This document shows positions 29,702 through 60,172 of a stretch of DNA of 64,000 bases, piece after piece (position 1 is the first letter of the stretch; each line of letters opens with the position of its first letter). The DNA comes from Lachnospiraceae bacterium (GTDB taxonomy: Bacteria; Bacillota; Clostridia; Lachnospirales; Lachnospiraceae), in contig CABJAB010000002.1 in the NCBI GenBank assembly GCA_902363445.1, positions 186,001-250,000 on the forward strand, in the 5' to 3' direction. Below the pieces are notes generated by a model. It worked only from the letters and a program-made list of their open reading frames with translations, was not told the DNA's origin and made no database searches. Made by a program: the position numbers and the translations under genes.

Positions 29702-29739
29702 AAAACGGCGGGGACATATTTGGCCCCTGCCGTTTTCTG
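29702..29739 (+). terminator. Intrinsic terminator after the SHMT-like gene
   Basis: AAAACGGC-GGGG...CCCC-GCCGTTTT stem with a short T-run, about 40 bp after the stop. Confidence 0.85.
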
Positions 29740-29905
29740 ATTCCATCCAGGCGGTTTTTTCCAACTGACATGGATAAACCTTAATTTTTCCATGTCAGAT
29801 TCCAACAAAAATCCGCATGATATGCGATTTTTGCGTTCCTGCGTCCGGGAAAATTCTGCTAACGCCTCTGCGGCGCTCGTCTTACGATGGAATCGGATCG
29901 TTCCT
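29739..29905 (-). repeat. Interspersed repeat module 1, copy A
   Basis: Read on the minus strand this matches copies at 48938-49143 and 59962-60172. It contains hairpin CTGACATGGA / TCCATGTCAG (29765-29798) and a second hairpin with CAAAAATCGCAT / ATGCGGATTTTTG arms. The region fills most of the 453-bp gap between the SHMT-like gene and the cupin-PocR kinase; no ordinary gene is apparent. Confidence 0.8.
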
Positions 29906-29989
29906 CCTGCTCCTCTTTCCACACCGGGATAAGGCTTCTGCCGGTGTCTTGGTATAGACTTTACAGGAATGATTGCAAAAAGTATTTTG

Positions 29990-30056
29990 TATCATACCTA
30001 AGGCACCCTTTAATACATGCCCTCCGGGCGGGCGCACTTTGTGCGTCAAAGTATTA
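29990..30056 (+). repeat. Interspersed repeat module 2, copy A
   Basis: Contains GCCCTCCGGGCGGGCGCAC and GTGCGTCAAAGTATTA, matching the module at 49190-49266 (same strand) and its reverse complement at 42886-42956. The stretch before it (29925-29989) shares TTCTGCCGGTGTCTTG with the repeat region at 59756-59771. Confidence 0.7.
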
Positions 30057-30118
30057 CTTTATGACCCAGTTTATTTTTGTTAGAATAGAGATATGTTATA
30101 GTAAAATGAGGTGATTCC

Positions 30119-31660
30119 ATGGGGAAGATACAAAAGCTGGATTGGGGAATGATTGAGTGGCTCTATGAGCCGGAAGAAGGATTCATGGATAACATGAGAG
30201 TGGGAATCAGCACTATGCTTCCAGGCACTGTGCAGCCTAGACATATTCACTGTGGGGATGAGCAGCTGATGTATGTCATCAGCGGACACGGGAGACAGCG
30301 GATAGGAGAAGAAGAAAGTGCTCTTGAGAAGGGATGCATCTACCACATTTCTACCGGGATGGCTCATGAATCCATAAACGATGGAGAAGATCCTATTGTC
30401 AAGCTTTTAATTTCCATACCGGCTCTGACGGCGGTGCCGAAGGTGCGGATGAATGAGGCAGAGCGGGTCAGGAAACAGGAGAGCATAGACAAACAAGAGT
30501 TTTTAAGGGATACGGTAAAAGAACTATTCCGGAGTATGCTCGCACCTCTTAAAATGCCTCTTGCTATTTTTGATTCGGAACGGAAGCTGGTCTATAAGAG
30601 TATAGATTATCCGGAGTACTGTAAGAATATCTGCCGTATTGATGAGGATTTGGAGAATTGTCCGCTCATTCGGAAAAAGAATTTTTGGGTTCCGCCTTAT
30701 TATGAAGGGGCTTCTGCCTATGTCTGTGAGCACGGTCTTTGGGTTTATGCGCTTCCCATCGTGGCGGACGGAGAATTTTTGGGATATATCAAGGCAGGGC
30801 ACGTCCGCACCGGGGAGAGAAAAGGAGATGAAACAGAGGAAGGGCTTCCCTATAATGTGCCGGACAGTACGGTGACGGGTATCGTCCAGATCATACATAA
30901 ACTGTCAGAAGCAATCTGCAATCATTATCAGCTGTGCCAGATGCAGGTGGCGCTCCAGCATAATGTGAGAGTGCTGTCTGACCGGAAGAAAGAGGAAGAA
31001 ATGCTTCAGGAGTCTTTAAGGACCACCCAGGACCAGGCATTTAATCTGCAGATCAACCAGCATTTCCTGTTCAACACACTGAATACGATTGCGGGACTTG
31101 CGGTGAAAGAGGAGGCGATACAGACCTACCAGGCGGTGGGAGATCTTTCTCAGCTTCTGCGCTATACGCTGCGTACGAGCAGTTACTTTGTGACATTGGG
31201 AGAGGAGATCGAATATCTGAAAAATTATACAAATCTTCAGAGACTGCGGTTCGGAAAGCGGCTGGAGGTAGAGTATATGATTTCATCCCTGCTGCTTCAG
31301 GAAAAGGTTCCTTTTAATTTTTTACAGCCTGTGGCAGAGAACAGCTTTAAGCATGGATTTAAAAACCAAAAAGGAAAAATGAAACTTTCCGTCCGGGCGG
31401 AACGGGAGGACAATAGGATCAAACTGACGGTCGCGGATAATGGAGAGGGGATAGAAGCGGCAGCACTCAAAGCTCTGCGGGAAAAAATCGAGAGCGGCTG
31501 TGCCGAACATGGCACGGCCATGGTGGTGCGGAAGCTGGAATCCCTATATGGAAGCAGCTTCGGATATCAGGTGGACTCTTCTGAAGAGGGGACCGCCGTA
31601 GTCATCCATATCCCCATAGAAGAGAGGAGGGACGCTGATGAAACGGGTTTTACTGGCTGA
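30119..31660 (+). CDS. Cupin-PocR-LytS-type sensor histidine kinase
   Basis: 513 aa, no membrane segments. Residues 1-110 form a cupin barrel (GTVQPRHIHCGDEQLMYVISG, then GMAHESINDG). Residues about 130-280 look like a PocR ligand-binding domain with the Cys pattern YCKNIC...NCPLIRK...YVCEHGLW. A coiled coil leads to a LytS/YehU-type His-kinase domain (LQINQHFLFNTLNTIAG, about residue 316) and HATPase (PVAENSFKHGF, DNGEGI). Two stacked small-molecule sensors on one soluble kinase is unusual. It overlaps the response-regulator gene by 23 bp. Ligand unknown. Confidence 0.85.
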   Translation: MGKIQKLDWGMIEWLYEPEEGFMDNMRVGISTMLPGTVQPRHIHCGDEQLMYVISGHGRQRIGEEESALEKGCIYHISTGMAHESINDGEDPIVKLLISIPALTAVPKVRMNEAERVRKQESIDKQEFLRDTVKELFRSMLAPLKMPLAIFDSERKLVYKSIDYPEYCKNICRIDEDLENCPLIRKKNFWVPPYYEGASAYVCEHGLWVYALPIVADGEFLGYIKAGHVRTGERKGDETEEGLPYNVPDSTVTGIVQIIHKLSEAICNHYQLCQMQVALQHNVRVLSDRKKEEEMLQESLRTTQDQAFNLQINQHFLFNTLNTIAGLAVKEEAIQTYQAVGDLSQLLRYTLRTSSYFVTLGEEIEYLKNYTNLQRLRFGKRLEVEYMISSLLLQEKVPFNFLQPVAENSFKHGFKNQKGKMKLSVRAEREDNRIKLTVADNGEGIEAAALKALREKIESGCAEHGTAMVVRKLESLYGSSFGYQVDSSEEGTAVVIHIPIEERRDADETGFTG

Positions 31661-32333
31661 TGACGAAAGTGCCCCCAGTGAGATCATCCGGTATTTTATT
31701 CGGAAGAACAACCTGCCTCTGGAGGTGGTCGGTGAGACAAAGGATGGAGATGCGACGGTCAAAGCCATATATCGGCTTCGGCCGGACATCGTGTTTTTGG
31801 ATATTGAGATGCCGGGCATGAATGGTCTTCAGGTTATGGAGAAGGTGAACCGGGAATACTCTGGGAACGTGAATTTTATTATCATCACGGCTTTTGATTC
31901 TTTTGCATATGTCCAGCAGGCATTGAGGATGAACGCAAAGGATTTTCTGCTTAAACCGGTCATGTACGAGCAGTTCTGCGAGACTATGAAACGGGTGGTC
32001 GGATATAAATATTCCGACAATCCTTCCTTTAACCAATTGCTGGAGTTCATAGATGTTCATTACGCGGAGGATATCCGTCTGGGAGACTGTGCGAAGGCGT
32101 TGTCCATGAGCGAAAGTAATGTGGCGCGTTTTTTCAAGAAATATTTAGACACTAATTTTACAGCTTACTATAATGAGGTGAGGATGAGAAGGGCCAGAGA
32201 ATTTCTGGAGCAGGGATATTCCATTAAAGAGACGGCTGATATGGCGGGTTACAACAATCTGAACTATTTTTACCGGATGTTTAAAAATCAATATGATATG
32301 ACGCCGAAGGAGTATATAGAACACGGCCTTTAG
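31638..32333 (+). CDS. Response regulator with AraC-type DNA-binding domain
   Basis: 231 aa. Receiver domain with DDE, phospho-acceptor in DIVFLDIEMPGMNG and KPV motif (residues 1-115), then two helix-turn-helix units of the AraC class (CAKALSMSESNVARFFKKYL and ETADMAGYNNLNYFYRMFK). Its partner is the upstream overlapping cupin-PocR kinase. Target genes are not evident; a terminator follows directly. Confidence 0.93.
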   Translation: MKRVLLADDESAPSEIIRYFIRKNNLPLEVVGETKDGDATVKAIYRLRPDIVFLDIEMPGMNGLQVMEKVNREYSGNVNFIIITAFDSFAYVQQALRMNAKDFLLKPVMYEQFCETMKRVVGYKYSDNPSFNQLLEFIDVHYAEDIRLGDCAKALSMSESNVARFFKKYLDTNFTAYYNEVRMRRAREFLEQGYSIKETADMAGYNNLNYFYRMFKNQYDMTPKEYIEHGL

Positions 32334-32343
32334 AAACATTCAT

Positions 32344-32384
32344 AGCCTTGAGAGTATCGGAAGATACTTTCAGGGCTTTTTTTA
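32344..32384 (+). terminator. Intrinsic terminator after the AraC-type regulator
   Basis: AGCC.TGA.AGTATC-GGAA-GATACT.TCA.GGCT stem followed by seven Ts. Confidence 0.88.
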
Positions 32385-32449
32385 TTTCAATGGAAGGTGC
32401 TTCTTGGTGCGAAAAGAGTCGATGAAAAATGCCGTCTGGCTCCTTCCTT

Positions 32450-32482
32450 TTGACAGATTCTGCAGAAAGAAACCACTATAAT
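32450..32482 (+). promoter_or_regulatory. spoIIG-type promoter with 21-bp spacer
   Basis: TTGACA (32450-32455) and TATAAT (32477-32482) are consensus hexamers but 21 bp apart. B. subtilis spoIIG has the same abnormality (22 bp) and needs phosphorylated Spo0A to be used. TTTTGACA on the complement reads TGTCAAAA, a Spo0A box overlapping the -35, as expected. A weaker match (AGTCGATGAAAAA) lies near 32418. Confidence 0.75.
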
Positions 32483-32489
32483 AGAGCCT

Positions 32490-33617
32490 GTGAAAATTAA
32501 ATTATACATAGACGTGCTGTTTGCAGTAAATGTTTGGATGAATGCAGGACTTCTGTTATTTACGGGGATGTGGTTCAAATATAGAAGAAAAGGGCTGAAG
32601 CTGCTTTTAGGAGCGGCGGCAGGAGGAGTCTGGTCCTGTGTGCTCGTACTTCTTCCGCCTTTTCCAAGATGGGCGGAGCTTCTGATCACTTATGGATTGA
32701 TCGGCCCTTTCATGTGCAGGATAGCATTTGGACTAAAGGGATGGCGTATATTGGGAAAAGCTTCTGCCGGACTGGCTGTGGTTTCCATATTTACGGGAGG
32801 TTTCCTGAACCAGCTCTATTACCATACGGGAATGGGATATGTCGTGCGGGAGCTTCTGATAGGCAGAGAAGCCTATGGTGGGAGCCTGCTGGTGCTTTTT
32901 TTTCTGGCTGTGTTTGCTTTTCTCGTTGGAAAGGAGGTTCTTGCTTTTGCGGGAAACCTGCGCAGGGAGAGGACCGGGCTTTGCCGGGTAGTACTTTGCC
33001 GCAAGGAGAAAAGAGTGGAAGTTACAGCTCTTGTGGATACCGGAAACCGGCTGTATGAGCCGACGACCGGGCTGCCGGTTTCCATTGGAGAGGAAGAGCT
33101 TCTGCGGCCATTATTTCCGGAACCGGAGGAAGAGAGCGGCTTTTTTTTAATCCCCTACAGCTCTATCGGAGGGAGCGGATTCCTGAAAGGGAAGCTTTTG
33201 GATGCCCTGGTCGTGGGAGGGGCAGAAAGAGCTTCCGGTCACCGAACGGAAGGACCGGTCATGGTGGCCCTCAAGGAAGGAAGCGTGTCCCGGGATGGAA
33301 GCTATCAGTTGATTCTGCACGGCGATTTCGCCGGATTTACAGCGTGTGAAAGGAAGAGGAGGAAGAGTCATGGTCATCAAGGTATCGGTTCCCAGCAGGT
33401 TTCAACTGAAAATCATCTCCAGCATGAGGAGCCTTTTATTTTCGAAGAAGAACGAGGTTCACTACATAGGGGGAAGCGATGTGCTTCCGGCCCCGCTTTC
33501 ACCGGAATCGGAAGCAATGATGATCGCGAGGCTGGGGACAGAGGAGGAGAAGGAAGCGAAAGCAGCCTTGATAGAGCACAATTTGAGACTGGTTGTCTAC
33601 ATTGCGAAAAAATTTGA
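32490..33617 (+). CDS. spoIIGA: Sporulation sigma-E factor-processing peptidase SpoIIGA
   Basis: 375 aa. N-terminal five-helix membrane domain (about residues 1-150) and a cytoplasmic aspartic-protease domain with the [12 protein letters not shown] motif near residue 181. It cleaves the pro-peptide of pro-sigma-E at the septum after a signal from the forespore. The GTG start gives the expected family N-terminus [13 protein letters not shown] but has no ribosome-binding site and lies only about 7 bp after the -10 box. The frame runs on for about 60-80 residues past the usual end (B. subtilis protein is about 309 aa), overlapping sigE by 248 bp; this tail (KSHGHQGIG...) looks like out-of-frame sigE and is probably not ancestral. 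Confidence 0.85.
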
Positions 33618-34110
33618 CAATACCGGTGTCGGAGTCGAGGATTTAATATCCATTGGCACCATTGGCCTCATTAAAGCCATCAATACATTCAACCGAGGCA
33701 AGAACATTAAGCTGGCGACCTATGCTTCCAGATGTATTGAAAATGAGATTCTGATGTATCTGCGGAGAAACAGCAAGACCAGACTGGAAATTTCCATTGA
33801 CGAACCTTTGAATGTGGACTGGGACGGCAACGAATTGCTTTTGTCTGACATACTGGGGACAGAAGAGGACGTTATCTCAAAGGGGATTGAAGATGAGGTG
33901 GAGAAATCACTTTTGAACCTGGCCATAGAAAAGCTCAATGAAAGAGAGCAAAAGATTGTCTCTCTCCGATTCGGGCTCAACACGGTCGATGGAAATGAGA
34001 TGACTCAGAAAGAAGTGGCCGATCTGCTGGGCATATCCCAATCCTATATTTCCCGGTTGGAAAAGAAGATTATCCACCAGTTAAAAAAAGAAATTGTACG
34101 ATTTGAATAA
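33370..34110 (+). CDS. sigE: RNA polymerase sporulation sigma factor SigE
   Basis: 246 aa from ATG 33370, with AGGAGGA upstream. The N-terminal 32 residues are a basic, amphipathic pro-sequence ending near [13 protein letters not shown], the SpoIIGA cleavage region. Region 2 ([49 protein letters not shown]) and region 4 ([26 protein letters not shown]) are intact. Directs early mother-cell transcription. It lies inside the 3' part of the extended spoIIGA frame. Confidence 0.97.
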
Positions 34111-34122
34111 ATGTGGTATAAT
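34094..34122 (+). promoter_or_regulatory. Sigma-A-type promoter for the lipoprotein gene
   Basis: TTGTAC (34094-34099), 17-bp spacer, TATAAT (34117-34122), overlapping the end of sigE, 68 bp before the lipoprotein start. Confidence 0.6.
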
Positions 34123-34189
34123 CGTAAAGGCATTTTGTGTTTGGTGGGAATTGGAAATTTTCGGTTGACTCAGGAGGAAGCAGTTCAAT

Positions 34190-34888
34190 ATGAAAACACA
34201 TACAATATGGAAAAGGACGGCGGCGTGTATCGCAGCGGTTTGTATGGTACTAAGCCTGGCAGCCTGTGGCTCCAAGGATGGAAATAGTATTGGTAGCGGC
34301 AGAGAAGTATATCAGGAATATGTCATCGGGATTATGGATGCCAACTATCTGGGGCAGTATGATAAGTATATAGAGATTACGGGCTCCGATCAGGAACAGG
34401 CTCAGAATATCTATGAAGCGAATACACAGGATTTTGCTGTGGCCATTGAAGAGGCGCTTTCCATCAAGTCCGATGTGGTCAGTATATCCTTGACAGAGCG
34501 GCTTGTGCAGGTGGCCAAGACCATTTACGGTCAGGCGAAGTATGAAGCGGTGGATGTGGTACGGAACGGAGATATCTATACAGTTACGGTGGAGATAGAA
34601 CCGGTGGATTTCTTCGGAACAGTGCAGCAGCCTTTTCAGTCAGCGGTTGACAGCTTTAATAACCGGGCAAAAAACGGAGAATTCGATGAATACAGCGACA
34701 CAGAATATGAGGAAGCATATGGTGAGGCTGTCACGGAGGCTCTGGAAAAAAGTGTATCTACTGTGACCTATGGGACGAAGATCACTGTAGATGTAACGCT
34801 GGATTATGACAAAGAAAATAATCTGTATGTAATCAGTGATGAGCAGATGGAAGCTCTGGACGTAAAAGTCGTGAATATGTCCAGATGA
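34190..34888 (+). CDS. Putative lipoprotein of unknown function
   Basis: 232 aa. Signal peptide with lipobox LSLAAC (Cys about residue 26), then a mostly alpha/beta acidic domain rich in Tyr and Glu with no motif I can name (YGQAKYEAVDVVRNGDIYTV near the middle). It should be anchored on the outer face of the membrane. It has its own promoter and terminator, and sits between sigE and sigG; that position does not prove a role in sporulation. Confidence 0.75.
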   Translation: MKTHTIWKRTAACIAAVCMVLSLAACGSKDGNSIGSGREVYQEYVIGIMDANYLGQYDKYIEITGSDQEQAQNIYEANTQDFAVAIEEALSIKSDVVSISLTERLVQVAKTIYGQAKYEAVDVVRNGDIYTVTVEIEPVDFFGTVQQPFQSAVDSFNNRAKNGEFDEYSDTEYEEAYGEAVTEALEKSVSTVTYGTKITVDVTLDYDKENNLYVISDEQMEALDVKVVNMSR

Positions 34889-34900
34889 TAACAGAAAAGG

Positions 34901-34944
34901 AAAACCAGACGGGCGGAAAAAGAACAGCTGTCCGTCTGGTTTTA
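34901..34944 (+). terminator. Intrinsic terminator after the lipoprotein gene
   Basis: AAACCAGACGG...CCGTCTGGTTT perfect stem plus T-run. Confidence 0.9.
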
Positions 34945-34986
34945 TGTTTTTTGTATATTGGGCGACGCAGCTCTACAAACTGGAAT

Positions 34987-35322
34987 TTATCGTTCTACAA
35001 CAACTGTGAGAATAACTAAATCTTTATCCCCTGTATTGATGATACTATGTTCAGAACCTTTTTTACAAATATGACAAGTTCCTTTAGTTAATATTTCTTT
35101 TTTTCCATCACAAATGGCTTTCCCGTTTCCAGATAATACATAGTTAATATCATCGCTTGTCTCGTGCTTATGCAAACCAATAGAGCCACCTGCATGAATG
35201 GCACAAGAAATTATTTTTCCTTGTTTGTCCATATACATGTTTGCTGTCATCATACCCGTTCCGTTATTCATGCCTGGAACGGTAATTTCTTTTATCTCAT
35301 TAAAATCTAATAACATATTCAT
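34987..35322 (-). CDS. Small cupin-domain protein
   Basis: 111 aa single-domain cupin. Motif 1 GGSIGLHKHETSDDINYVLSG contains the metal-binding pattern H-x-H-x(n)-E/D around residues 52-60; motif 2 is KGSEHSIINTGD. Function unknown; such proteins are sugar/amino-acid isomerases, dioxygenases or binding modules. It is on the minus strand between sigE and sigG, breaking the usual sigE-sigG adjacency, and is AT-richer than both neighbours, which suggests insertion. Confidence 0.8.
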   Translation of the reverse strand: MNMLLDFNEIKEITVPGMNNGTGMMTANMYMDKQGKIISCAIHAGGSIGLHKHETSDDINYVLSGNGKAICDGKKEILTKGTCHICKKGSEHSIINTGDKDLVILTVVVER

Positions 35323-35481
35323 TCCTCCAAATTTCCACTTGTTAAACTTTCTTTATGGGAAAATACAAATAGCTTTTACTTGTGCTCATTGCGCCTTTTC
35401 GCTTAAGGCAAGCTTTGTTTCCTAACCTTATGTATTCTTCTCACCGCGTGGAGGCAGGTTTCTGTCTGTTATAAAAGTCAT

Positions 35482-35545
35482 TGGAGAAGTCTCTGCATCG
35501 CCGGCCGACCAAAATCGTGGCGGCCGGAAACTTCTGCCGGAGCTT
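35482..35545 (-). repeat. Interspersed repeat module 3, copy D
   Basis: On the minus strand CGGCAGAAGTTTCCGGCCG... aligns with copies at 48820 and 59531. The surrounding 396-bp gap (35323-35718) otherwise shows no clear gene; a 44-codon frame runs through the module on the minus strand. Confidence 0.65.
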
Positions 35546-35680
35546 GAGTGGAGATTCCCCAAAATAATTCCAATAGCCTTGATTAATCAACGCTTTTCCG
35601 GTTTGTCAAGGCCTTTTAGACACCTTTCTATTTCCTTTTTTTTACGATAAAGTATCAGTATAAATCCAGGAAAAACCGTG

Positions 35681-35702
35681 CATCATTCTATATAGAATGA
35701 TG
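35681..35702. promoter_or_regulatory. Perfect 22-bp palindrome in the sigG leader
   Basis: CATCATTCTA-TA-TAGAATGATG ends five to six bases before the GGAGG site of sigG. In RNA it makes a 10-bp hairpin next to the ribosome-binding site. A possible sigma-F/G -35 (GTATA, 35658-35662) lies upstream. Confidence 0.7.
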
Positions 35703-35718
35703 ATGCGGAGGTAAAGGT

Positions 35719-42852: not shown

Positions 42853-42885
42853 CACATAAAGGAGGAGGCCTGCCATGAAGAAATA

Positions 42886-42956
42886 GGGGTATACCTTGCC
42901 GCACGAAGTGCGCCCGCCCGGAGGGCATGAATCAAGGGATGCCCTTGGGTATACTA
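42886..42956 (-). repeat. Interspersed repeat module 2, solo copy
   Basis: Reverse complement of the module at 49190-49266, nearly identical over about 65 bp (GCCGCACGAAGTGCGCCCG, CGGAGGGCATGAATCAAGG). Ends carry inverted TATACC/GGTATA sequences, giving a short palindromic, MITE-like look. Confidence 0.75.
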
Positions 42957-43094
42957 ATGGAGCCGTTTGTATTCGATTTTCCCAATTTTATGATACCAGA
43001 ATTCATTCAAAGGAGAAAGGCCACGCGGTCCTGGCAGCCGCCTGGTTTATGGCGTATAAAAAATGGAGAAGGCGAACCGCGAGAGGAAAAAAAG

Positions 43095-48722: not shown

Positions 48723-48756
48723 AACCGCTGCCGGATATCACCGGCAGCGGTTTTTT
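48723..48756 (+). terminator. Intrinsic terminator after guaB
   Basis: AACCGCTGCCGG-ATATCA-CCGGCAGCGGTT then six Ts. Confidence 0.94.
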
Positions 48757-48819
48757 AGATGATGATACAAAATACTTATTGGAAACATTTTTAGAAAGCT
48801 CCGATCAAGCTCCCGTTAG

Positions 48820-48878
48820 GCACCGGCAGAAGTTCCGGACCGTCACGACTCCGGCTTGCTGGCGATGTAGGGACCGCC
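48820..48878 (+). repeat. Interspersed repeat module 3, copy B
   Basis: CACCGGCAGAAGTTCCGGAC... through GCTGGCGATGTAGGGACCGCC; aligns with 59531-59588 and the complement of 35482-35545. Confidence 0.75.
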
Positions 48879-48937
48879 CCAATGACTTTTACAACAAATG
48901 AGAGCTTATTTCGGTGCGGAAGAAAGAACAAGAGGAA

Positions 48938-49143
48938 GGATCCGATTCCATCGTAAGGCAAGCGCCGCAGAGGCGTTAGCAGGATCTTCCCGGCCGCAGG
49001 GAGGTAAAAACCGAATTTCATGCAGGTTTTTATTGGAATCTGACATGGAAAAATATCGATTTATCCATGTCAGTTGGAAAGGACCGACTGGAGGCCGCAA
49101 AGATTCTGGTTATGGCTGCCAGCGAGCCGCCTGGATGGAATCG
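48938..49143 (+). repeat. Interspersed repeat module 1, copy B
   Basis: Begins near GATTCCATCGTAAG and runs past GCCGCCTGGATGGAATCGG. Hairpin CTGACATGGA / TCCATGTCAG at 49040-49073. Shares most of its length with 59962-60172. The 605-bp gap 48715-49319 is largely made of modules 3, 1 and 2 in that order. An open frame of 141 codons (48898-49323) crosses it. Confidence 0.82.
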
Positions 49144-49189
49144 GATTTCCTCCTGCCTTGTGAATCAGACAAAGAAAACTTGTTTGAAA

Positions 49190-49266
49190 GGTATTCAAAG
49201 GTATACCCAAGGGCATCCCTTGATTCATGCCCTCCGGGCGGGCACACTTCGTGCGGCAAGGTATTA
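49190..49266 (+). repeat. Interspersed repeat module 2, copy B
   Basis: GGTATACCCAAGGGCATCCC... to GTGCGGCAAGGTATTA; exact or near-exact complement of the solo copy at 42886-42956. Confidence 0.8.
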
Positions 49267-49319
49267 AATGAAGTTTTGTTATTGATTTTTTTGTTTATCA
49301 TAAAACTGGGAGAAGAGAT

Positions 49320-50879
49320 ATGAAAAAGAAAAGAGGTATTATCATCACCCTTGTGTGTGTGATCATCGTAGCCGCAGCGGGCAGCCTTTGTCTTCTCATT
49401 TATATGAATAAGGAGAAAAGGACGGGGTACGAGAAATGGATGGAAGCGGGGAAGAAGGATTTGGCGGAAGGAAATTATGAGGAGGCCATATCTTCTTTTA
49501 AACGGGTGATCGAAATGGAGCCGGAATATGCAGATGCTTACATAGGGTTTGCAGACGCATCCCTTGGTGCGGACTTTTCCTATTGGAAAGAGGCGGTTAA
49601 AACGATTTGCGATGGGATTCAAAGGACAAAAAATTTCGTATTGGTGAAAAAGGCGCTGGAGATCGGGCAGGAACGTGCGGACGAGACAGAAAAGCAGGAA
49701 GTTCTGGATATGGTGAAGGCGGTCTATCCGGAGCTGCCCGGGAAGACCGTTAAAGATTACTGGGATGATGAAAAAAAGGAAACAGCAGAGAAAAACAGCG
49801 AGAGCACTTTGGATGAGACAATAGAAAATTCCGGACAAGAAACAGGGAATGTGTCCGGAGCGGGGAATTTGGCGGGAAATATAAATAACGGCGGATACGT
49901 GGTTGAGAATGAAACCTACGTGGTATACAGCTATGAGAATGCTCTTTGGCGCATGAATCAGGACGGGAGCGGCAGAGTGAAGCTTTTTGACGGAAGCTGT
50001 TCTTCTCTGAATCTGTGGGAGGATCAGGTCTATTTTCTGGCGGAAGAAGAAAAGGCCGGGGAATATGACAGACCGTATAAGACGCGGACACCGTACCGTG
50101 TCGGATTGGACGGAGACGGGCTGACCGCGATCGGCGTGCCGGCGGATGAGGGCAATGCGGTCATGAGCTTTTCGGATTATTATATGGATGAATACACGGC
50201 CGGAGCTGGCTACCGGGGATTCACTGTATATGACGGATATCTTTACTATATAGGAAGAAACGGGAGAGAAGGGACTTATACCTGCATCAATCTGAACAGC
50301 AACGGCGACCAGACGGCGACGGTGACCTATCATGATAATGCTTCCCTCTACCGGATGGATCTGGACGGAGGGAATGTGACGGAGTTGGCGGAGAATTTGG
50401 GGAACGCTTCTCCTCAAATGTGCATTTCAGACGGAAAGCTCTATTATACAGTCAGCTATTATAACTGCTTCTTCGGACCTTATAATTTTACCAAGTTCTA
50501 CCGGGCTTCTTTGGACGGTACCATGGCGGAAGAGCTGCCGGTACATCGGGAAAGTAACGCGCCGTTTACAAGCGATTACGGCAGTTATACGGAATATGTG
50601 CTGGGGATTCAGGTTTCGGACGGAAAGCTGTATCTTTCCTGCGGGGACAGTGAGGGGGAATTCCCGGATTCCAGATTCCATGTATACGATGCCTCAAAGG
50701 AGACCTTTGGAGATAAGCTTCTGGAAGAAAGAAGCTGGGTCGGAACTGTCGCTTCGGATGGGAAGCTGTATGCCGCGACGGGCGGAAGAGTCTGGGGAGA
50801 AAAGGGGGCTCCTCTTACTAACCGGGCAATGGCAGTCTGCGGACAACGGTCAGGCGGAGAAGCTCCTGAAGGTGTTTGA
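49320..50879 (+). CDS. TPR/DUF5050-like membrane-anchored protein, frameshifted
   Basis: 519 aa as read. One N-terminal membrane segment (about residues 6-28), a TPR-like pair of helices (GKKDLAEGNYEEAISSFKRVIEMEPEYADAYIGFADA, spread over 45-82), a low-complexity linker, then beta-propeller-like repeats of the DUF5050 type (ENALWRMNQDGSGRVKLFDG; ASLYRMDLDGGNVTELAEN; DGKLYYTVSYY). Such proteins are probably extracellular. The frame goes wrong at an A4G5 run near 50800-50808: the last 23 residues look unrelated, and the natural continuation lies in the next frame to 51051, giving an expected length near 577 aa. Confidence 0.75.
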   Translation: MKKKRGIIITLVCVIIVAAAGSLCLLIYMNKEKRTGYEKWMEAGKKDLAEGNYEEAISSFKRVIEMEPEYADAYIGFADASLGADFSYWKEAVKTICDGIQRTKNFVLVKKALEIGQERADETEKQEVLDMVKAVYPELPGKTVKDYWDDEKKETAEKNSESTLDETIENSGQETGNVSGAGNLAGNINNGGYVVENETYVVYSYENALWRMNQDGSGRVKLFDGSCSSLNLWEDQVYFLAEEEKAGEYDRPYKTRTPYRVGLDGDGLTAIGVPADEGNAVMSFSDYYMDEYTAGAGYRGFTVYDGYLYYIGRNGREGTYTCINLNSNGDQTATVTYHDNASLYRMDLDGGNVTELAENLGNASPQMCISDGKLYYTVSYYNCFFGPYNFTKFYRASLDGTMAEELPVHRESNAPFTSDYGSYTEYVLGIQVSDGKLYLSCGDSEGEFPDSRFHVYDASKETFGDKLLEERSWVGTVASDGKLYAATGGRVWGEKGAPLTNRAMAVCGQRSGGEAPEGV

Positions 50880-53134: not shown

Positions 53135-53159
53135 CAGGCGGAAGTACATAATATGGATA

Positions 53160-53339: not shown

Positions 53340-54575
53340 ATGAAAAAGGAAGAAGAAGGAAATTTAGAAACTGCCAGACATGGGATGAAGAAATACGCTT
53401 CCATGGGTCTGACGGCATTTTTAGTGATCGCGGCGAGTATTCTGTTTTTTCTGCTTTTATACAAAATAGACGTAGTTTTGAAAGCCATTCGGACTATCTT
53501 AAAGATTCTGGAGCCGATCGTTTTTGGATTTGTATTCGCGTATATCATGTATCCGGTGGTGAGATTCTTTGAAAAGAGACTCGATGGTCTTATAAAGAAG
53601 ATTATAAAAAAGGATGAACGGGCTGTTAAACTCAATAAGGGACTCAGCATCTTTCTGGCTCTCGTCTTCTGGGTCGCTGTTATCGTGATCCTGGGTGTCA
53701 TGGTACTTCCCGAGCTGTATACTAATATCCGCAATATGATCGTGGCACTCCCGGGACAGATCCAGCACGCGTCGGCGGCGATTACCGACTATATGGGCCA
53801 GGAGGGGATGAACACGGAGATTGTTCGGAATATTACGGAAAAGATCATCACTTTCTTTAATAACTGGGTACAGACGGATTTCCTGAAGGATATGAATATG
53901 GTCTTTGGATACCTGACTGCGGGAGTCATCAATTTCTTCAGTACTACTTTGAACATTGTGGTGGGCGTTATCGTCGCGCTGTATGTCCTGAATGGCAGGC
54001 GTACTTTTAAGCGGCAGGCGAAGCAAGTTATTTACGCGGCCTTTTCTAAGAAAAATGCGGGAATCCTGATTGATACGCTGAAAGACAGCAACAGGATATT
54101 CGGCGGTTTCATAGCCGGGAAGCTCGTGGATTCCTTGATAATCGGGATTCTGTGTTTTATCGTGCTTTATTTCCTGAACATGCCTTATACAGTCCTCGTC
54201 AGCGTAATAGTTGGCGTGACCAACGTGATACCGTTTTTCGGACCGTATATGGGGGCAATTCCCAGCGCGATTCTGATACTCCTGGCCAATCCGGCAAAGG
54301 GAGTCATTTTCGTTATATTCATCATCATTCTCCAGCAGATCGACGGAAATATCATCGGACCGAAGATATTAGGGGAATCCACAGGACTTTCGGCTTTTTG
54401 GGTGGTGTTTTCGATTCTTTTCTTCGGAGGGCTTTTCGGGATTGTGGGAATGCTCATCGGAGTACCTGTATTTGCCGTGATCTATCAGATCATCAGCTCC
54501 ATTGTCGATTATAAATTGAGGAAAAAGGGGATGACGGCCTTGGCGGATGAGGGGAAAACTGACAAAGAAATTTGA
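53340..54575 (+). CDS. AI-2E family transporter
   Basis: 411 aa with about seven to eight membrane segments and a soluble insertion near residues 120-185. Signature regions FGFVFAYIMYPVVRFFEKR, GGFIAGKLVDSLIIGILCF and GPYMGAIPSAILILL belong to the TqsA/PerM/YtvI family. Members include autoinducer-2 exporters and Na+/H+ antiporters, so the transported species is unknown here. Good ribosome-binding site (AAGGAGCGGG). Confidence 0.9.
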   Translation: MKKEEEGNLETARHGMKKYASMGLTAFLVIAASILFFLLLYKIDVVLKAIRTILKILEPIVFGFVFAYIMYPVVRFFEKRLDGLIKKIIKKDERAVKLNKGLSIFLALVFWVAVIVILGVMVLPELYTNIRNMIVALPGQIQHASAAITDYMGQEGMNTEIVRNITEKIITFFNNWVQTDFLKDMNMVFGYLTAGVINFFSTTLNIVVGVIVALYVLNGRRTFKRQAKQVIYAAFSKKNAGILIDTLKDSNRIFGGFIAGKLVDSLIIGILCFIVLYFLNMPYTVLVSVIVGVTNVIPFFGPYMGAIPSAILILLANPAKGVIFVIFIIILQQIDGNIIGPKILGESTGLSAFWVVFSILFFGGLFGIVGMLIGVPVFAVIYQIISSIVDYKLRKKGMTALADEGKTDKEI

Positions 54576-54649
54576 TGCATGATTCGGGAAGTTATGATAA
54601 AATAACAGTGAATTTTCAATGTTTGACATAAGATGCAGGAGGATAGATC

Positions 54650-55399
54650 ATGTATTGTGAAGAATGCGGGAAGCAAATACCGGATGATTCCAGGTTCTGT
54701 GACGGATGTGGCGCAAAGGTCCGGCCTGTGGAGCGGGAGGATGCTCCGCTGCCTCAGGATTGGCAGGATCCATACAGAGGCGGGCAGTCTTCTTATGATG
54801 CACCGGAAAAGGAGAAAAAAGGCAGGGGTACGACGGTACTGATCGCCGTTTTGAGTGTGGTAGCCGTAGTATTGATAGGCGTGCTCATTTTTCTTGGAGT
54901 AAAAGTTTTTGGTGGAAAAAATGGAGGCGATGTGGAAATAGCGGGGGCGGAGACCACCTCTGAGGCCGGCGTGGAAGACGGGAAAGAAGAGAGTAAAAAG
55001 GAAACAAAGACCAGTGAGGCGTCAGCCGAATCCTCCGTGACGGCAGCGCCGACGGCACCTTCCATAGCGCCGACGACCACGGCACCTGTAACTACTGCGG
55101 CAGCGGTAGCTGCGGAAAGCGAATATGTACTGCCGGGAAGCGATTCTGGTTATCTGACGGAAGCAGATTTGGCCGGACTTACGAAAGAACAGCTGAGGGT
55201 AGCGAGAAACGAGATATATGCCCGCCATGGACGAAAATTCAAGGATGCGGCCCTGAACGAATATTTTATGAGCAAGTCTTGGTATACGCCTCTTTACGAG
55301 CCAAACCAGTTTGAAGCTTTGGGGGACAGCGTATTCAATGACTATGAGGTCGCGAACCGGAAGCTGATCGCGGATTACGAAAAGAAGATGGGGTATTGA
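54650..55399 (+). CDS. Zinc-ribbon membrane protein with YARHG domain
   Basis: 249 aa. Zinc ribbon YCEECGKQIPDDSRFCDGCG (residues 2-21), linker, one membrane segment (about 63-87), a long Thr/Ala/Ser/Glu linker (about 95-165) and a C-terminal YARHG domain (ARNEIYARHGRKFKDAALNEYF..., about residue 190). The YARHG domain is extracytoplasmic and may bind peptidoglycan or polymers. It is the first gene of a run of zinc-ribbon, CpaE-like and FHA proteins, and has a GGAGG site. Confidence 0.88.
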   Translation: MYCEECGKQIPDDSRFCDGCGAKVRPVEREDAPLPQDWQDPYRGGQSSYDAPEKEKKGRGTTVLIAVLSVVAVVLIGVLIFLGVKVFGGKNGGDVEIAGAETTSEAGVEDGKEESKKETKTSEASAESSVTAAPTAPSIAPTTTAPVTTAAAVAAESEYVLPGSDSGYLTEADLAGLTKEQLRVARNEIYARHGRKFKDAALNEYFMSKSWYTPLYEPNQFEALGDSVFNDYEVANRKLIADYEKKMGY

Positions 55400-55431
55400 A
55401 TTCAGTTATCCCAGGAAGGACGTTTGAGAGA

Positions 55432-56454
55432 ATGAAGCAGATACGGATAGCGGTATATGATTTAGATGCCGTGTATACGGAACGGTTTTGTCAGTATATG
55501 GGGGAACGGTATGGGCAGACAGCGGAATTCTGTCCGGTCTATGAAAGGAGCGAGCTGGATGGCCTGATCGCCGCCAGATCTGTGGATGCCGTGGTGACGG
55601 CTGATGCGCTCCGGGAAGAATATCCGCCGTTCATAGGGGATATCCATGTGGGATATTTTACGGCGGAAGCTTCAGAAGAGCCGGGAGAGATTTTCCGCTT
55701 TCAGAGCTGCCGGGAACTTTTTCATGATATAGAAATCGTTTTGGACCAGGAAGACACTGCAGTGAAGACGGTGGCCTTTATCGGTGCGAATGCGGCGGTG
55801 GGGACTTCCACGGCTGCTGCGGCGTATGCGATGCGTCTTGCCGCAGAGGAAAAACGGGTCCTGTACATCAATATGAGCGATTTGGGCGATACCGGCAGTA
55901 TCTTCCAGGGGGTCAATCCAAAAGACTTCCAGTTCCTTTTGTCGGAAATGAAGGCGGGAGCGGATATAAAAGCCGCCATGTCTGCCGCGCTGAACCGGGA
56001 TTCCAGCGGAGTGTATTTTTATGACAATGCCGATGCCCCTATGAGCATTATGGACATCGAGGAAGAGCGGGTGGAAGCATTTTTGAAGGGACTGACAGAG
56101 CGGGGAGATTTCCGCTATATCATTATAGACAGCAGCTTTTCCGTAAACCATGGGCTTTTTGCAGCTCTTAAAGCTGTGGATAAGGTGGTTGTGGTCAATG
56201 ACGGAACCTATGTTTCCAATCAGAGATTTCATAAGATATGGACGCTGATGAAACGTTTGGATTTGACAACGCATCCGGGAATCTGTCAGAAGACGGCACT
56301 TCTTTATAACAAATTCCATTCCCAGTACGGGAAACGTTATGAAAACCCGGAGATTGCGGTTGCTGGGAGCATAGAGGTCCTTCCGCCGGCCGGAACGGTG
56401 CAGATGGCAGAGCAGATGGCCCGGCTGGAGGTGCTGCAGGAAATATTGCGGTAG
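55432..56454 (+). CDS. CpaE/MinD-like protein with degenerate P-loop
   Basis: 340 aa from ATG 55432. Residues 1-115 look like a receiver-like N-terminal domain (IRIAVYDLDAVYTERFCQY), as in CpaE. The second half is a SIMIBI/ParA-type NTPase fold: ANAAVGTSTAAAAYAMRLA aligns with the deviant Walker A motif, but both the signature and P-loop lysines are gone; YIIIDSSFSVN is the Walker B position. It probably does not hydrolyse nucleotide in the normal way. Lies 25 bp before the FHA gene. Confidence 0.8.
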   Translation: MKQIRIAVYDLDAVYTERFCQYMGERYGQTAEFCPVYERSELDGLIAARSVDAVVTADALREEYPPFIGDIHVGYFTAEASEEPGEIFRFQSCRELFHDIEIVLDQEDTAVKTVAFIGANAAVGTSTAAAAYAMRLAAEEKRVLYINMSDLGDTGSIFQGVNPKDFQFLLSEMKAGADIKAAMSAALNRDSSGVYFYDNADAPMSIMDIEEERVEAFLKGLTERGDFRYIIIDSSFSVNHGLFAALKAVDKVVVVNDGTYVSNQRFHKIWTLMKRLDLTTHPGICQKTALLYNKFHSQYGKRYENPEIAVAGSIEVLPPAGTVQMAEQMARLEVLQEILR

Positions 56455-56478
56455 AACAGAAGGGAGCAGAGATTACAT

Positions 56479-57447
56479 ATGGATAGGATCGATAGACAAG
56501 CGCCGACAGAAGCGGCATTTGATGGGATCACCTATGAAATGCTTATTTTTAATGATATAGAAGGTGTTCTGAAGCTGGAGATTGATGAAGCGGCAGGAGA
56601 GGCGAGATATATTACGGATGGATATTCTCCGCTGCCTCGTATGTTTCCTACCAGAATGCCGAAAAAAGCGGTGGTCCAGGTGCTTAAAAGCCTTCTTGGA
56701 GTTTGGGTGAATCTGGATGAATACATGATTCCGAGAAATGAACTGCTGATGGAGCTTTCTGATGTATTTATCAATGAGGAGAGCGGGGAGGTCAAATGGA
56801 TCTGCGGGCTTCAAAAAGAATCGAGGAGTCCGATAGAAAAACTGCGCCTTTTTATGATGGAGCTGGTGAATGTCATGGAAGGGAATCCGGAGAAAAATCA
56901 GGAAAATATGATCACGCTTTTAAAATATGTAAAGGGAGTGAAGCGGGATAACCTGGATCAGTGCAGGGAAATGGCGGATGCCCTTCTTCTGCAAGATATT
57001 GCGGCTGATTCGGCGGAAGCTGCGGCGGCAGAGGATCTGGTATCTTTTGGAATAGAAATGCCGGAGACAGAAAATGCGCCGGAATTTTCATATGAAGAAG
57101 AGCCGTCGGAGGATGGACTGGATATCATGCTCCCGGATGCGTTTGCTGCCCGTGAGATCGCTTATATCATCCGCATCCGGACAGGTGATGAAATGGCGGT
57201 CGTGCTGGATGAGACTCTCATTGGAAAGAGTCCCGACGCGGATTTTTGTATCCCGGATAACCGGGCGGTCAGCCGCCATCATGCCAGTATCCTGATGGAT
57301 GAAGGAGAATATTATCTGGTAGATCATAACTCTACTAACTCCACATACTTGAACGGCATGCGTTTGGACCCGGGAGATGAATACAGGCTTTGCCACGGAG
57401 ACGGGTTTGTTTTGGCGGATGAGCCGTTCCAGTTTATGATAAGGTAG
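56479..57447 (+). CDS. DUF6382-like and FHA-domain protein
   Basis: 322 aa. The N-terminal 190 residues (YEMLIFNDIEGVLKLEIDE...) resemble DUF6382, found beside FHA domains in Bacillota. The C-terminal FHA domain (about residues 235-322) has IGKSPDADFCIPDNRAVSRHHA and NSTNSTYLNG, with the Arg/Ser/His/Asn residues for phosphothreonine binding. No membrane segment. It suggests Ser/Thr kinase-dependent assembly with its neighbours; no kinase gene is in the window. Confidence 0.85.
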   Translation: MDRIDRQAPTEAAFDGITYEMLIFNDIEGVLKLEIDEAAGEARYITDGYSPLPRMFPTRMPKKAVVQVLKSLLGVWVNLDEYMIPRNELLMELSDVFINEESGEVKWICGLQKESRSPIEKLRLFMMELVNVMEGNPEKNQENMITLLKYVKGVKRDNLDQCREMADALLLQDIAADSAEAAAAEDLVSFGIEMPETENAPEFSYEEEPSEDGLDIMLPDAFAAREIAYIIRIRTGDEMAVVLDETLIGKSPDADFCIPDNRAVSRHHASILMDEGEYYLVDHNSTNSTYLNGMRLDPGDEYRLCHGDGFVLADEPFQFMIR

Positions 57448-57466
57448 GGCAGAAAGGGAGGAGAGT

Positions 57467-58168
57467 ATGTACTGTACGAACTGCGGATCGAAGAACAGCG
57501 ATGGGGCAAGGTTTTGCAGAAGCTGCGGCAGGCCGATGGAATCAGAGACGATTCCGCTGGCATATGAAGCGGAAGAAGCCGCAAGAGAGGAGTCTTGGAA
57601 TCAGGCCGGTCAGTCGGTAACACAACCTTTTTATCCTGAGTATGGAGATCCAGTACAGCCTGGGATTCCGCCCTATCAGGGAAATGATAGGAAGAAAGGA
57701 AAAAAAGGGCTGGCCATCGCCGTTGTTTTGATTCTGGTAGTGGCTGCCGTTTCGGCCTTTGGATTTATCGCATATAAGGAGAGCAGACCGATGGCGCCGG
57801 TGGAACAGCTTGTGGGAGCGTTAAAAAAAAGCGACTGGGGAGCTCTTTATGACAGTGTTTATTGGGGTACAGCACCGGTATATGACAGAAAGACCTTTAT
57901 CTCGGAAGCAAGGGAAAATATGGGACAGTTGGTTTCCTATATATCGATGCTCAGTAATGTCAAGGTGAGCAAGGTGGCGGAAGGAACGCCATACCGGAAT
58001 TCGGATGGGCTTATCTGCAAAGATCTGACAGTGAATATGAGTGTCTCGGCTCTGGGAATGTCTCAGGATCAGGAGGCAACCATAACGGTGGTGAGGAGCG
58101 GAAGAAAATTTTTGCTTATTCCCGTTTGGAAAATATCGGCGGAGGATATCGGTTCCATATTGGATTGA
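57467..58168 (+). CDS. Zinc-ribbon membrane protein
   Basis: 233 aa. Zinc ribbon [20 protein letters not shown] (residues 2-21), proline-rich linker, one membrane segment (about 79-101), and a C-terminal domain (about 110-233) like those of DUF4878/lipoprotein-type nuclear-transport-factor folds ([24 protein letters not shown]). Same architecture as the upstream YARHG protein but a different outer domain. 20 bp after the FHA gene, probably one operon. Confidence 0.82.
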
Positions 58169-58292
58169 CGAACCCGGGATTTGGCCACACAGGGAGCGGA
58201 TGAAAATACAAGGAATATTGGCTTTACTTATAAATATCAATATAAATGAGTTCTTTAGTTCTAATGAGGAACGACATCAAGGAGGAAAAAGT

Positions 58293-59462
58293 ATGGCAAA
58301 GTTTTGTAGTCAATGCGGCAGGCCGCTGAATGAAGGCGAGATTTGTACGTGTCAGCAGCAAAAAACACAGGCGCCCCAGACACCGCCAGTAGCTGCGGAG
58401 GAGCAGCAGGCGCCGGTACAGCCGGATAAAGAAGGGCAGCAGACGAATGCACAGCAGCCCGGCCAGGGTCAGCCCTATGGGAATCAGCAGGGATATACGC
58501 AGCAGCCGAACCAAGGTCAGCCCTATGGGAATCAGCAGGGATATACGCAGCAGCCTGGACAGGGTCAGCCCTATGGGAATCAGCAGGGATATACACAGCA
58601 GCCGAACCAGGGTCAGCCCTATGGGAACCAGCAGGGATATACGCAGCAGCCGAACCAGGGCCAGCCCTATGGGAATCAGCAGGGATATACGCAGCAGCCG
58701 AATCAGGGTTATCCCTATGGGAATCAGCAGGGATATGCACAGCAGCCTGGACAGGGTCAGCCTTATGGAGGACCTCAGGCACCGAAGCAGCCCGGGGCCG
58801 CAGGCGTTTATGTGAAGGGACTGTGGGGAACAATCCTGGATGCGTTCAAAAAGCCGGCCGGAACTCTTGGGAATTTGGCTGCAGCCGGGAAGAGCCATGT
58901 GATATTCGGACTTTTGGGGATTCAGGTGGTCTTGTTTTCTCTGATGTTCGCTTTCTTCGGATTTAAGATTAATTCAATGGTGAGCAAATATAGTTACGGT
59001 TTGGGAATCAAAGTGGTCAATACTCCTTTGCTATTCTTTATGGCGCTTCTTGCAGGGGCGGCGATCTTTGCGGTTTGGGCCGCTTTTTCCATGCTGTTTG
59101 TGAGATCCATGGCGAAGAAGCCGATGACTTATATGCAGGGTCTTGGAGTTGCTTCATCAAAAGCTCTGGCACAGATGCCGTTCACAGCATTATCAGCACT
59201 GCTCATTTTGATTCTTCCTATAAGCCAGTTTTCCTATATTTTGATTCTGCTTGTTTATGAAGCAGGCAGCCTTCTGTGTTATTTCTTCATTCCGGCCGCA
59301 ATGGATTCTTTCTGCCCGAATGATAAGAATAAAAGGATTTGGATGCTGTTTGTGATTTTCCTTGTTAATATAGTTGCAGCGGCGATCATTTCGTGGATTT
59401 TCCTGAACGTGGCCGGACGGAATATTCTCGGTCAGCTCACGGGCTATTCCAGTCTTTTCTAA
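58293..59462 (+). CDS. Zinc-ribbon, [15 protein letters not shown] membrane protein (YIP1-like)
   Basis: 389 aa from ATG 58293 (AAGGAGG seven bases upstream). Zinc ribbon [17 protein letters not shown] near the N-terminus, about 107 residues of [17 protein letters not shown] repeats (from about residue 54), then five to six membrane segments in the last 190 residues resembling YIP1/DUF2628 membrane domains. The repeats are low-complexity, tyrosine/glutamine-rich, and could phase-separate or bind cell wall. Last gene of the zinc-ribbon cluster; terminator follows. Confidence 0.82.
58452..58772 (+). repeat. 48-bp coding tandem repeat, about 6.7 units
   Basis: Sixteen-residue units QQP(G/N)[12 protein letters not shown], six full and one partial, in frame. 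Units differ mainly at synonymous sites and at the G/N position, so the number of units can change by slippage or recombination without frameshift. Confidence 0.93.
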
Positions 59463-59486
59463 ATTAAAACAGCAGGACATAGTGTA

Positions 59487-59517
59487 CCGCCGAATCTGTT
59501 TAGAGATTCGGCGGTTT
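59487..59517 (+). terminator. Intrinsic terminator after the repeat-protein gene
   Basis: CCGCCGAATCT-GTTTAG-AGATTCGGCGG then TTT; strong stem, weak tail. Confidence 0.8.
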
Positions 59518-59530
59518 GCGTTTGTTAGAT

Positions 59531-59588
59531 ATCGGCAGAAGTTCCTGGCCGTCACGATTTCGGTTCGCTGGCGATGCAGGGACCGCTT
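59531..59588 (+). repeat. Interspersed repeat module 3, copy C
   Basis: TCGGCAGAAGTTCCTGGCCG... to GCTGGCGATGCAGGGACCGC. Very similar to 48820-48878. Confidence 0.75.
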
Positions 59589-59619
59589 TATCCCCACTCC
59601 GGAAGTATCGCTCACATGT

Positions 59620-59900
59620 CGGCAGGAAATCTTTATGATTTCCTGTCTCCGGTTCGCTCAGAAACGGAATCGGTATTTCCGTTTCTGCCTCCCTCCGTCT
59701 GGGAACACCGGCTTCTGCCCTGCGGCGCTCACCTTTAGGCCGGCCTGGAATCTTTCTGCCGGTGTCTTGCCTGCCGCACTATTTTGGCTGCTATGAAAAA
59801 CTACACCGAAGGGCACCCCTTAACACATGTCCTGCGGGCATTCTCAAAAATATATGGGGAGAACCAACGGCCCGCGCAAAACGCAGCGGGCCGCGGTGTC
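59620..59900. repeat. Hairpin-dense region between repeat modules
   Basis: Contains three strong hairpins: CAGGAAATC / GATTTCCTG (about 59623), CAGAAACGGAA / TTCCGTTTCTG (about 59659) and CGGCCCGC / GCGGGCCG (about 59868). A partial module 2 lies at about 59805-59846. No gene is apparent between 59463 and 60371. Confidence 0.65.
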
Positions 59901-59961
59901 CGCTGCAACACTTTTTAAAACAGCCTCATTTCATGGTGATGCGGCAGAAATGACAAGAGGA

Positions 59962-60172
59962 AGATTCTAGTTTCATCGTAAGGGGAGCGCCGCAGAGCCG
60001 TTGGCAGAATTTTACAGGCCGCAGGGAGGCAAAAACCGTATATCATACGGGTTTTTGTTGGAATCTGATATGGAAAAATATCGATTTATTCATATCAGTT
60101 GGAAAGGACCGACTGGAGGCCGCAAAAATTCTGCTTATGGCTGCCAGCGACCCGCCTGGATGAAACCAGATT
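59962..60172 (+). repeat. Interspersed repeat module 1, copy C
   Basis: Hairpin CTGATATGGA / TTCATATCAG at 60065-60098 differs from copy B on both arms in a way that keeps pairing. Second hairpin CAAAAACCGTAT / ATACGGGTTTTTG upstream of it. An open 65-codon frame (60001-60198) crosses it. Confidence 0.82.

What the first reader, a model, noticed from the sequence alone, without database searches (positions are those of the whole stretch)
29739..60172. Interspersed repeat module with covarying hairpins (three copies)
Copies at 29739-29905 (minus), 48938-49143 and 59962-60172 share a core. One hairpin reads CTGACATGGA/TCCATGTCAG in A and B but CTGATATGGA/TTCATATCAG in C: the C-to-T change on one arm is matched by G-to-A on the other. 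The second hairpin also changes on both arms (AAAAATCGCAT with ATGCGGATTTTT in A; AAAAACCGTAT with ATACGGGTTTTT in C), keeping the same one-base bulge. Compensatory changes point to a selected RNA or cruciform structure. I do not recognise it as a known RNA class or MITE.
Basis: seen in the sequence. Interest (0 to 1): 0.82.

Follow-up and report, generated by a model that had tools for sequence, protein, structure and literature searches.

The report
Modular palindromic intergenic repeat family
Three gaps between ordinary genes of a Lachnospiraceae bacterium carry copies of a folded, palindromic DNA repeat whose paired bases change together; it looks like a new member of the kind of small scattered repeats (MITE- or BOX-like) known from other bacteria.

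Summary
Three diverged copies of one repeat (R1) lie at 29739-29933 (-), 48905-49204 (+) and 59940-60223 (+). The unit is one imperfect palindrome: inverted ends (about 24 nt in B and C) close a long arm around internal hairpins. Between B and C, 6 or 7 base pairs changed on both sides and still pair, while about 0.8 were expected; 0 of 20,000 shuffles reached that. Two neighbouring repeat families and coding repeats show no such excess, though these controls are short. Fourteen stray database ORFs over R1, two of them named (Qiania dongpingensis, Lacrimispora sp. NSJ-141), add forced paired changes and also forced breaks; pairing is kept better in the hairpins than in the arm.

R1 lies in mosaics with two further repeat families, in both orientations relative to the genes. 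No transposase was found among 63 ORFs scanned, and no Rfam family matches. Best reading: a non-autonomous, modular, MITE/BOX-like palindromic repeat with maintained pairing. Target-site duplication and AT-richness were not met, and no genome of the host was reachable to seek the mobilising enzyme. Whether RNA or DNA pairing is kept, and by what, stays open.

The parts
29739..29933 (-). R1 copy A: short inverted ends and hairpins 1 and 2 kept, about 43 nt of the right arm missing; abuts a terminator-like hairpin behind the SHMT gene (seen by eye at 29701-29739, not listed by the scan)
48905..49204 (+). R1 copy B (palindrome proper about 48929-49155), full length
59940..60223 (+). R1 copy C (palindrome proper about 59954-60180), full length
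48929..48952 (+). left inverted end of R1 copy B (pairs with 49134-49155)
   Evidence: alignment score 32, 0 of 2,000 shuffles
49134..49155 (+). right inverted end of R1 copy B
49003..49034 (+). hairpin 1 (A-tract, stem, T-tract) of copy B; upper stem broken here. The copies in A and C match a terminator pattern on both strands
49040..49073 (+). hairpin 2 of copy B (CTGACATGGA/TCCATGTCAG)
60065..60098 (+). hairpin 2 of copy C (CTGATATGGA/TTCATATCAG): one compensated pair and one G.T pair
29765..29798 (-). hairpin 2 of copy A
48762..48904 (+). second repeat family (II), left part only, directly upstream of R1 copy B
59519..59775 (+). second repeat family (II), a palindrome with internal hairpins, upstream of R1 copy C
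   Evidence: z -5.8
29920..29999 (-). second repeat family (II), reduced copy next to R1 copy A; weaker case, resting on a 37-nt match and on a model that includes it
35420..35607 (-). second repeat family (II), copy without R1
   Evidence: (E 2e-9)
49203..49266 (+). third repeat family (R3), downstream of R1 copy B
29997..30056 (+). third repeat family (R3), next to copy A but in the opposite orientation to R1
42891..42954 (-). third repeat family (R3), copy without R1
   Evidence: (E 1e-24)
59791..59840 (+). third repeat family (R3), partial copy between II and R1 copy C; weaker case, resting on a model that includes it
   Evidence: nhmmer 59791-59904

Best explanation
R1 is a non-autonomous, modular, palindromic interspersed repeat of MITE/BOX kind, found so far only in a few Lachnospiraceae (this genome, Qiania dongpingensis, Lacrimispora sp. 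NSJ-141) and on metagenomic contigs. Shown: dispersed copies between genes, inverted ends, a long arm around hairpin modules, mosaics with two other repeat families, loss of an arm segment in one copy, and paired bases that change together. Inferred: copies were spread as DNA by an enzyme acting in trans that recognises the folded form or the inverted ends. Inferred: pairing is maintained because the folded form is what is recognised or copied, and because a tightly folded insert between genes is tolerated. Also inferred: hairpin 1 could act as a weak terminator on both strands.
For: Three diverged copies in three gaps. Inverted ends in B and C, scores 32 and 31, 0 of 2,000 shuffles each. Compensated pairs 6-7 vs 0.8, 0 of 20,000. 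Copies in both orientations relative to the flanking genes. R1, II and R3 combine in different orders: II-R1-R3 in B, II-R3-R1 in C, R1 and II inverted beside R3 in A, II or R3 alone elsewhere. About 43 nt lost in A. Stray database ORFs read through II-R1 or R1-R3 joins (P0023, P0026-P0029). The frame of those ORFs is not clearly under coding constraint: pN/pS 0.167/0.141 (A/B) and 0.119/0.199 (B/C), with a stop in C.
Against: No target-site duplication at the boundaries tried. Not AT-rich: 46-51% G+C vs 48.1% in the window. Similarity between copies runs past the inverted ends on both sides, so the ends of the palindrome may not be the ends of a mobile unit. No transposase, recombinase or reverse transcriptase among 63 ORFs scanned with Pfam; the genome could not be searched. 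The pattern scan of the genome collection gave only three hits in unrelated organisms, of which the one read is not R1, so breadth rests on protein records alone. Selfish repeats need not keep pairing after insertion, yet these do.
Confidence: 0.6

Rival explanations
1. R1 is a structured RNA element (multicopy small RNA, or a processing, termination or stability element of flanking transcripts) whose hairpins are selected as RNA.
For: Compensated pairs far above shuffles. Hairpins keep pairing better than the outer arm: 8 of 9 determined states vs 8 of 22 (Fisher p 0.016, structure of B), 8 of 10 vs 12 of 27 (p 0.07, structure of C); counts, tests; states share descent, so p is rough. In the hairpins one-sided changes gave 4 G.U and 0 A.C (structure of B) or 3 and 0 (structure of C) on the R1 strand. 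C shows a stepwise state: one compensated pair beside a G.T pair.
Against: Over the whole unit G.U vs A.C is 8:3 (p 0.23) or 8:6 (p 0.79). Strand energies are similar: B -104/-99, C -101/-93, A -58/-63. A is antisense to its neighbours. No promoter-like match directly in front of R1. No Rfam family. Upper hairpin 1 is broken in B.
Confidence: 0.22
2. The palindrome has no present function; its arms are kept complementary by template switching or conversion between arms during replication, which makes double changes without selection on structure.
For: Template switching has been proposed to create and maintain hairpins with compensatory changes (PMC8794818, passages seen). The long inverted repeat is a fit substrate. 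The C-G to G-C change at 48959/49126 (structure of C only) and the A-T to C-G change at 49043/49070 (P0029, inferred from amino acids) do not pass through a G.U step.
Against: A templated stretch should become perfectly complementary, but compensated pairs lie next to uncorrected ones: A.C at 48944/49142 in C between compensated pairs, and G.T at 49048/49065 in hairpin 2 of C. Mismatches gather in the long outer arm rather than in the short hairpins.
Confidence: 0.13
3. The open frame through R1 encodes a short peptide, and conservation is coding.
For: One frame is open through A and B, and its product is in databases as hypothetical proteins. B/C pN/pS is 0.60 in this frame, the lowest of the six frames.
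Against: Stop codon in C; substitutions spread over codon positions as 12/9/9, 11/9/13 and 12/8/11; A/B pN/pS 1.2; start points differ between records; no Pfam match.
Confidence: 0.02

Closest known systems
BOX elements of Streptococcus pneumoniae (boxA-boxB-boxC), PMC3049150 (passages seen)
   Same: Modular interspersed repeat, inverted ends paired with each other in the fold, inner module that folds largely on its own and can be absent
   Different: No tandem inner module seen in R1; BOX has reported target-site duplications and a proposed partner IS; sequence kinship was not tested
RUP and SPRITE repeats of S. pneumoniae, PMC3049150 (passages seen)
   Same: Short folded interspersed repeats; SPRITE resembles a terminator with AAAA/TTTT ends, as hairpin 1 here has A- and T-tracts
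   Different: R1 is longer (about 227 nt between its inverted ends in B), branched, and not AT-rich
Bacterial MITEs in general, PMC10969869 (passages seen)
   Same: Short, inverted ends, stable stem-loop fold predicted, intergenic
   Different: No direct repeats found at the ends, no parent IS found, not AT-rich
REP/BIME mosaics, PMC2817692 (start of abstract in search listing)
   Same: Mosaics of palindromic units in changing orientation
   Different: R1 is far longer than a REP; no REP-associated transposase among the ORFs scanned

Membership tests
MITE | terminal inverted repeats | tested here: met
   Left and right ends of B and C align as inverted repeats, scores 32 and 31, 0 of 2,000 shuffles each; in A only a short end is left; homology between copies runs beyond these ends
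MITE | target-site duplication | tested here: not met
   No flanking direct repeat above 4 bases at the boundaries tried (4-mers in A and C, none in B); true boundaries uncertain, no empty site available
MITE | highly base-paired fold | tested here: met
   z -7.0, -6.9, -3.9
MITE | AT-rich | tested here: not met
   46.4, 51.1 and 47.1% G+C against 48.1% of the window
MITE | dispersed non-coding copies between genes | tested here: met
   3 copies in 3 gaps of the window; no clear coding constraint; genome copy number not testable
MITE | partner transposase with matching ends in the same genome | not testable with these tools
   No genome is held for the window; no transposase among 63 ORFs of the window
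BOX element | boxA/boxB/boxC sequence | not tested
   Compared by published description only
Known structured RNA (Rfam) | score at or above the gathering score of a family | tested here: not met
   0 matches in the window; only far sub-threshold ones at E <= 1
Protein-coding gene | open frame under purifying selection | tested here: not met
   Stop in C, no consistent third-position excess, pN/pS 1.2 (A/B) and 0.60 (B/C)

The most novel reading that the evidence does not exclude
R1 is a clade-specific multicopy structured RNA in which the inner hairpins are selected as RNA on one strand, carried by a palindromic mobile repeat, so that a selfish repeat has supplied its host with dispersed hairpin or terminator modules.
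Probability: 0.2. Interest if true: 0.6.

Novelty: new member of a known kind. Interest (0 to 1): 0.4.

Why it matters
A modular palindromic repeat family in Lachnospiraceae in which double changes, half-way changes and broken pairs can all be counted would let one ask directly whether such repeats keep their fold through selection (on RNA or DNA) or through template switching between the arms. It would also explain at least two 'hypothetical proteins' on record as translated repeats.

Tried and rejected
Searches of the window's own genome and its relatives returned errors because no genome is held. One genome contigs pattern scan gave 3 hits in unrelated organisms, about the number that I expected by chance from a rough estimate of my own (no call). 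The one read (L001) is ordinary sequence without R1; L002 and L003 were not read. Viral contigs: 6 pattern scans gave one chance hit (L004, read) and five times none; 2 protein-pattern scans found no relative. Plasmids and phages by DNA and by translated search with copy B: no match. (Y1 transposase family in the genome of L001) was made to see whether the control genomes give handles; they did not.

Rejected: coding gene; known Rfam RNA. Compensation was also tested in II and R3 and not found: 0 or 1 double changes against 0 to 0.7 expected, never rarer than 882 of 3,000 shuffles, so the covariation claim is for R1 only. These controls and the coding repeats (0 double changes in 3 of 3 comparisons, 0.17-0.39 expected) are short and have little power. 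The 'few broken pairs' measure is not specific: coding repeats show it too (35, 170 and 79 of 3,000 shuffles).

Own error: the alignment row of copy A made held five bases on both sides of its gap. The A tests were redone with little change, and the strand energies of A. One search was not redone; its single hairpin mismatch for A (49074/49087) rests on the doubled bases.

Prior description was sought only in the open PMC library (lists of 20 of 23, 10 of 12, 3 of 3 and 4 of 4 papers). None of the listed papers describes such a repeat in Lachnospiraceae by title or start of abstract. Three papers were looked into by passages (PMC3049150, PMC10969869, PMC8794818); no paper was read whole.
Full report
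What is there. The window looks like a Lachnospiraceae chromosome: the TPR/DUF5050 protein at 49320-50879 is 94% identical to one of Qiania dongpingensis, and the genes are ordinary core genes (cell division and peptidoglycan cluster, sporulation factors, GroEL/ES, IMPDH, SHMT). No whole genome is held for it. The shared unit, called R1 here, is longer than stated: A 29746-29933 (-), B 48905-49204, C 59940-60223. B and C are full length. A has lost about 43 nt of the right arm between two near-identical short words, and its right end abuts a hairpin that looks to me like the terminator of the SHMT gene; the scan does not list that hairpin.

The shape. A model of the family also matches the reverse complement of each copy, so the unit is one long imperfect palindrome. 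A further weak reverse match lies in the second repeat family at 59627-59779 (E 3e-6). The ends pair over about 24 nt in B and C (scores 32 and 31, 0 of 2,000 shuffles). Inside lie the outer arm and three hairpins. Hairpin 1 has an A-tract before and a T-tract after its stem. Folding z-scores are -7.0, -6.9 and -3.9. The consensus terminator scan finds hairpin 1 on both strands in A and C, not in B; it is a weak pattern match.

Compensation. Using the structure predicted from B alone, 6 pairs differ on both sides in C yet still pair, 3 differ on one side and still pair, 6 are broken; shuffles that move the same 35 substitutions give 0.81, 8.3 and 12.4. Using the structure of C alone: 7, 3 and 5, against 0.81, 6.8 and 15.5. 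None of 20,000 shuffles reached the double changes in either case. After repair of an alignment slip, C to A gives 5 (0.72 expected, 2 of 5,000), A to C 6 (1.0 expected, 1 of 5,000), B to A 2 (0.28 expected, 126 of 5,000) and A to B 2 (0.31 expected, 160 of 5,000). Controls: coding tandem repeats of the window give 0 double changes in 3 of 3 comparisons, and families II and R3 show no excess; all these are short, so their power is low.

Relatives. R1 reads as one open frame in A and B, and the protein database holds 14 records with it: 10 from a single-sequence search and 4 more with an alignment. Two are named: Qiania dongpingensis (P0025) and Lacrimispora sp. NSJ-141 (P0024); that NSJ-141 is now Lientehia hominis is recalled, not shown by a call. 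Eleven lie on ENA contigs of 552 to 1,669 bases and one (P0028) on a 518-kb NCBI contig without a name. The frame does not look like a gene: C has a stop, codon positions change about equally, and pN/pS is 1.2 (A/B) and 0.60 (B/C). The records can still serve as evidence on bases. With the structure of B, amino-acid changes force 4 two-sided changes where pairing stays possible, 22 one-sided ones where it stays possible, and 14 breaks; with the structure of C, 6, 30 and 20 (cells, not independent events). The neatest is P0029, where Asp-to-Ala and Val-to-Gly turn an A-T pair of hairpin 2 into C-G; P0028 turns the same pair into G.T. Collapsed to distinct states and with the window copies added, the hairpins keep pairing in 8 of 9 determined states and the outer arm in 8 of 22 (Fisher p 0.016); with the structure of C, 8 of 10 and 12 of 27 (p 0.07). 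Undetermined states (6 and 14) were left out, and states that share descent make these p values rough. The one hairpin mismatch under the structure of B rests on the alignment slip.

RNA or DNA. If RNA on one strand were selected, one-sided changes should favour G.U over A.C on that strand. Over the whole unit the counts are 8:3 and 8:6 (p 0.23 and 0.79), in the hairpins alone 4:0 and 3:0: suggestive at most. Strand energies do not decide. A lies antisense to its neighbours, B and C sense. Template switching between arms can also make double changes (PMC8794818, passages), but here compensated pairs stand next to uncorrected ones, which a single templated repair would have mended. I therefore think that pairing itself is kept, without saying in which molecule.

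Context. In the same gaps lie two further repeat families: II (48740-48947, 59484-59718, 35420-35607, 29920-29999) and R3 (49191-49293, 42865-42963, 29982-30083, 59791-59904), by nhmmer with models built from these stretches; blastn supports all but the copy of II at A and the copy of R3 at C. In C, family II is itself a palindrome with internal hairpins (59519-59775, z -5.8), and the whole gap folds with z -13.3 against 20 shuffles. Orders differ: II-R1-R3 in B, II-R3-R1 in C, inverted R1 and II beside R3 in A, single II and single R3 elsewhere. Database ORFs P0026-P0029 and P0023 read across such joins. The left end of the B mosaic and the right end of the C mosaic match as inverted repeats (AATACTT.TTG.AAACATTT, 0 of 2,000 shuffles); the A left end with the C right end gives 81 of 2,000, the B left with the B right end 1,124, and the A left with the B right end 639 of 2,000. 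A larger unit is possible, not shown.

Mechanism and kin. The anatomy is that of non-autonomous palindromic repeats; the nearest descriptions that I saw are BOX, RUP and SPRITE of pneumococcus (PMC3049150, passages) and a MITE review (PMC10969869, passages). R1 meets short size, inverted ends, fold and dispersal; it fails AT-richness and target-site duplication, and the partner enzyme is not testable. So it works like a BOX- or MITE-like repeat, but membership in the MITE class in the strict sense is not shown. I rate it a new member of a known kind, with an open and testable question on why the hairpins keep their pairing.

Noticed in passing
window 59480-60240: The whole gap between the genes ending at 59462 and starting at 60372 is packed with hairpins (z -13.3 against 20 shuffles), with terminator-like matches at 59486-59515 and 59883-59906.
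   Followed up: partly
window 48762-48904, 59519-59775, 35420-35607, 29920-29999: Second palindromic repeat family (II), with and without internal hairpins; no compensatory excess found in its left part.
   Followed up: partly
window 29997-30056, 42891-42954, 49203-49266, 59791-59840: Third short repeat family (R3) with small hairpins around CATGCCCTCCGGGCGGGC; also found without R1.
   Followed up: partly
window 49320-50879: The TPR/DUF5050 protein departs from its 577-aa Qiania dongpingensis relative near its C-terminus and ends early at 519 aa, which looks like a frameshift or a sequencing error.
   Followed up: no
window 58437-58820: 48-bp tandem repeats inside an ORF coding for a Gln/Gly/Tyr/Pro-rich stretch of a protein without Pfam match.
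   Followed up: no
window 21277-21625: Gap behind ftsZ of only 22% G+C in a 48% G+C window.
   Followed up: no
database records P0024 and P0025: Two deposited hypothetical proteins (Lacrimispora sp. NSJ-141, Qiania dongpingensis) look like translations of R1 repeats rather than genes.
   Followed up: partly
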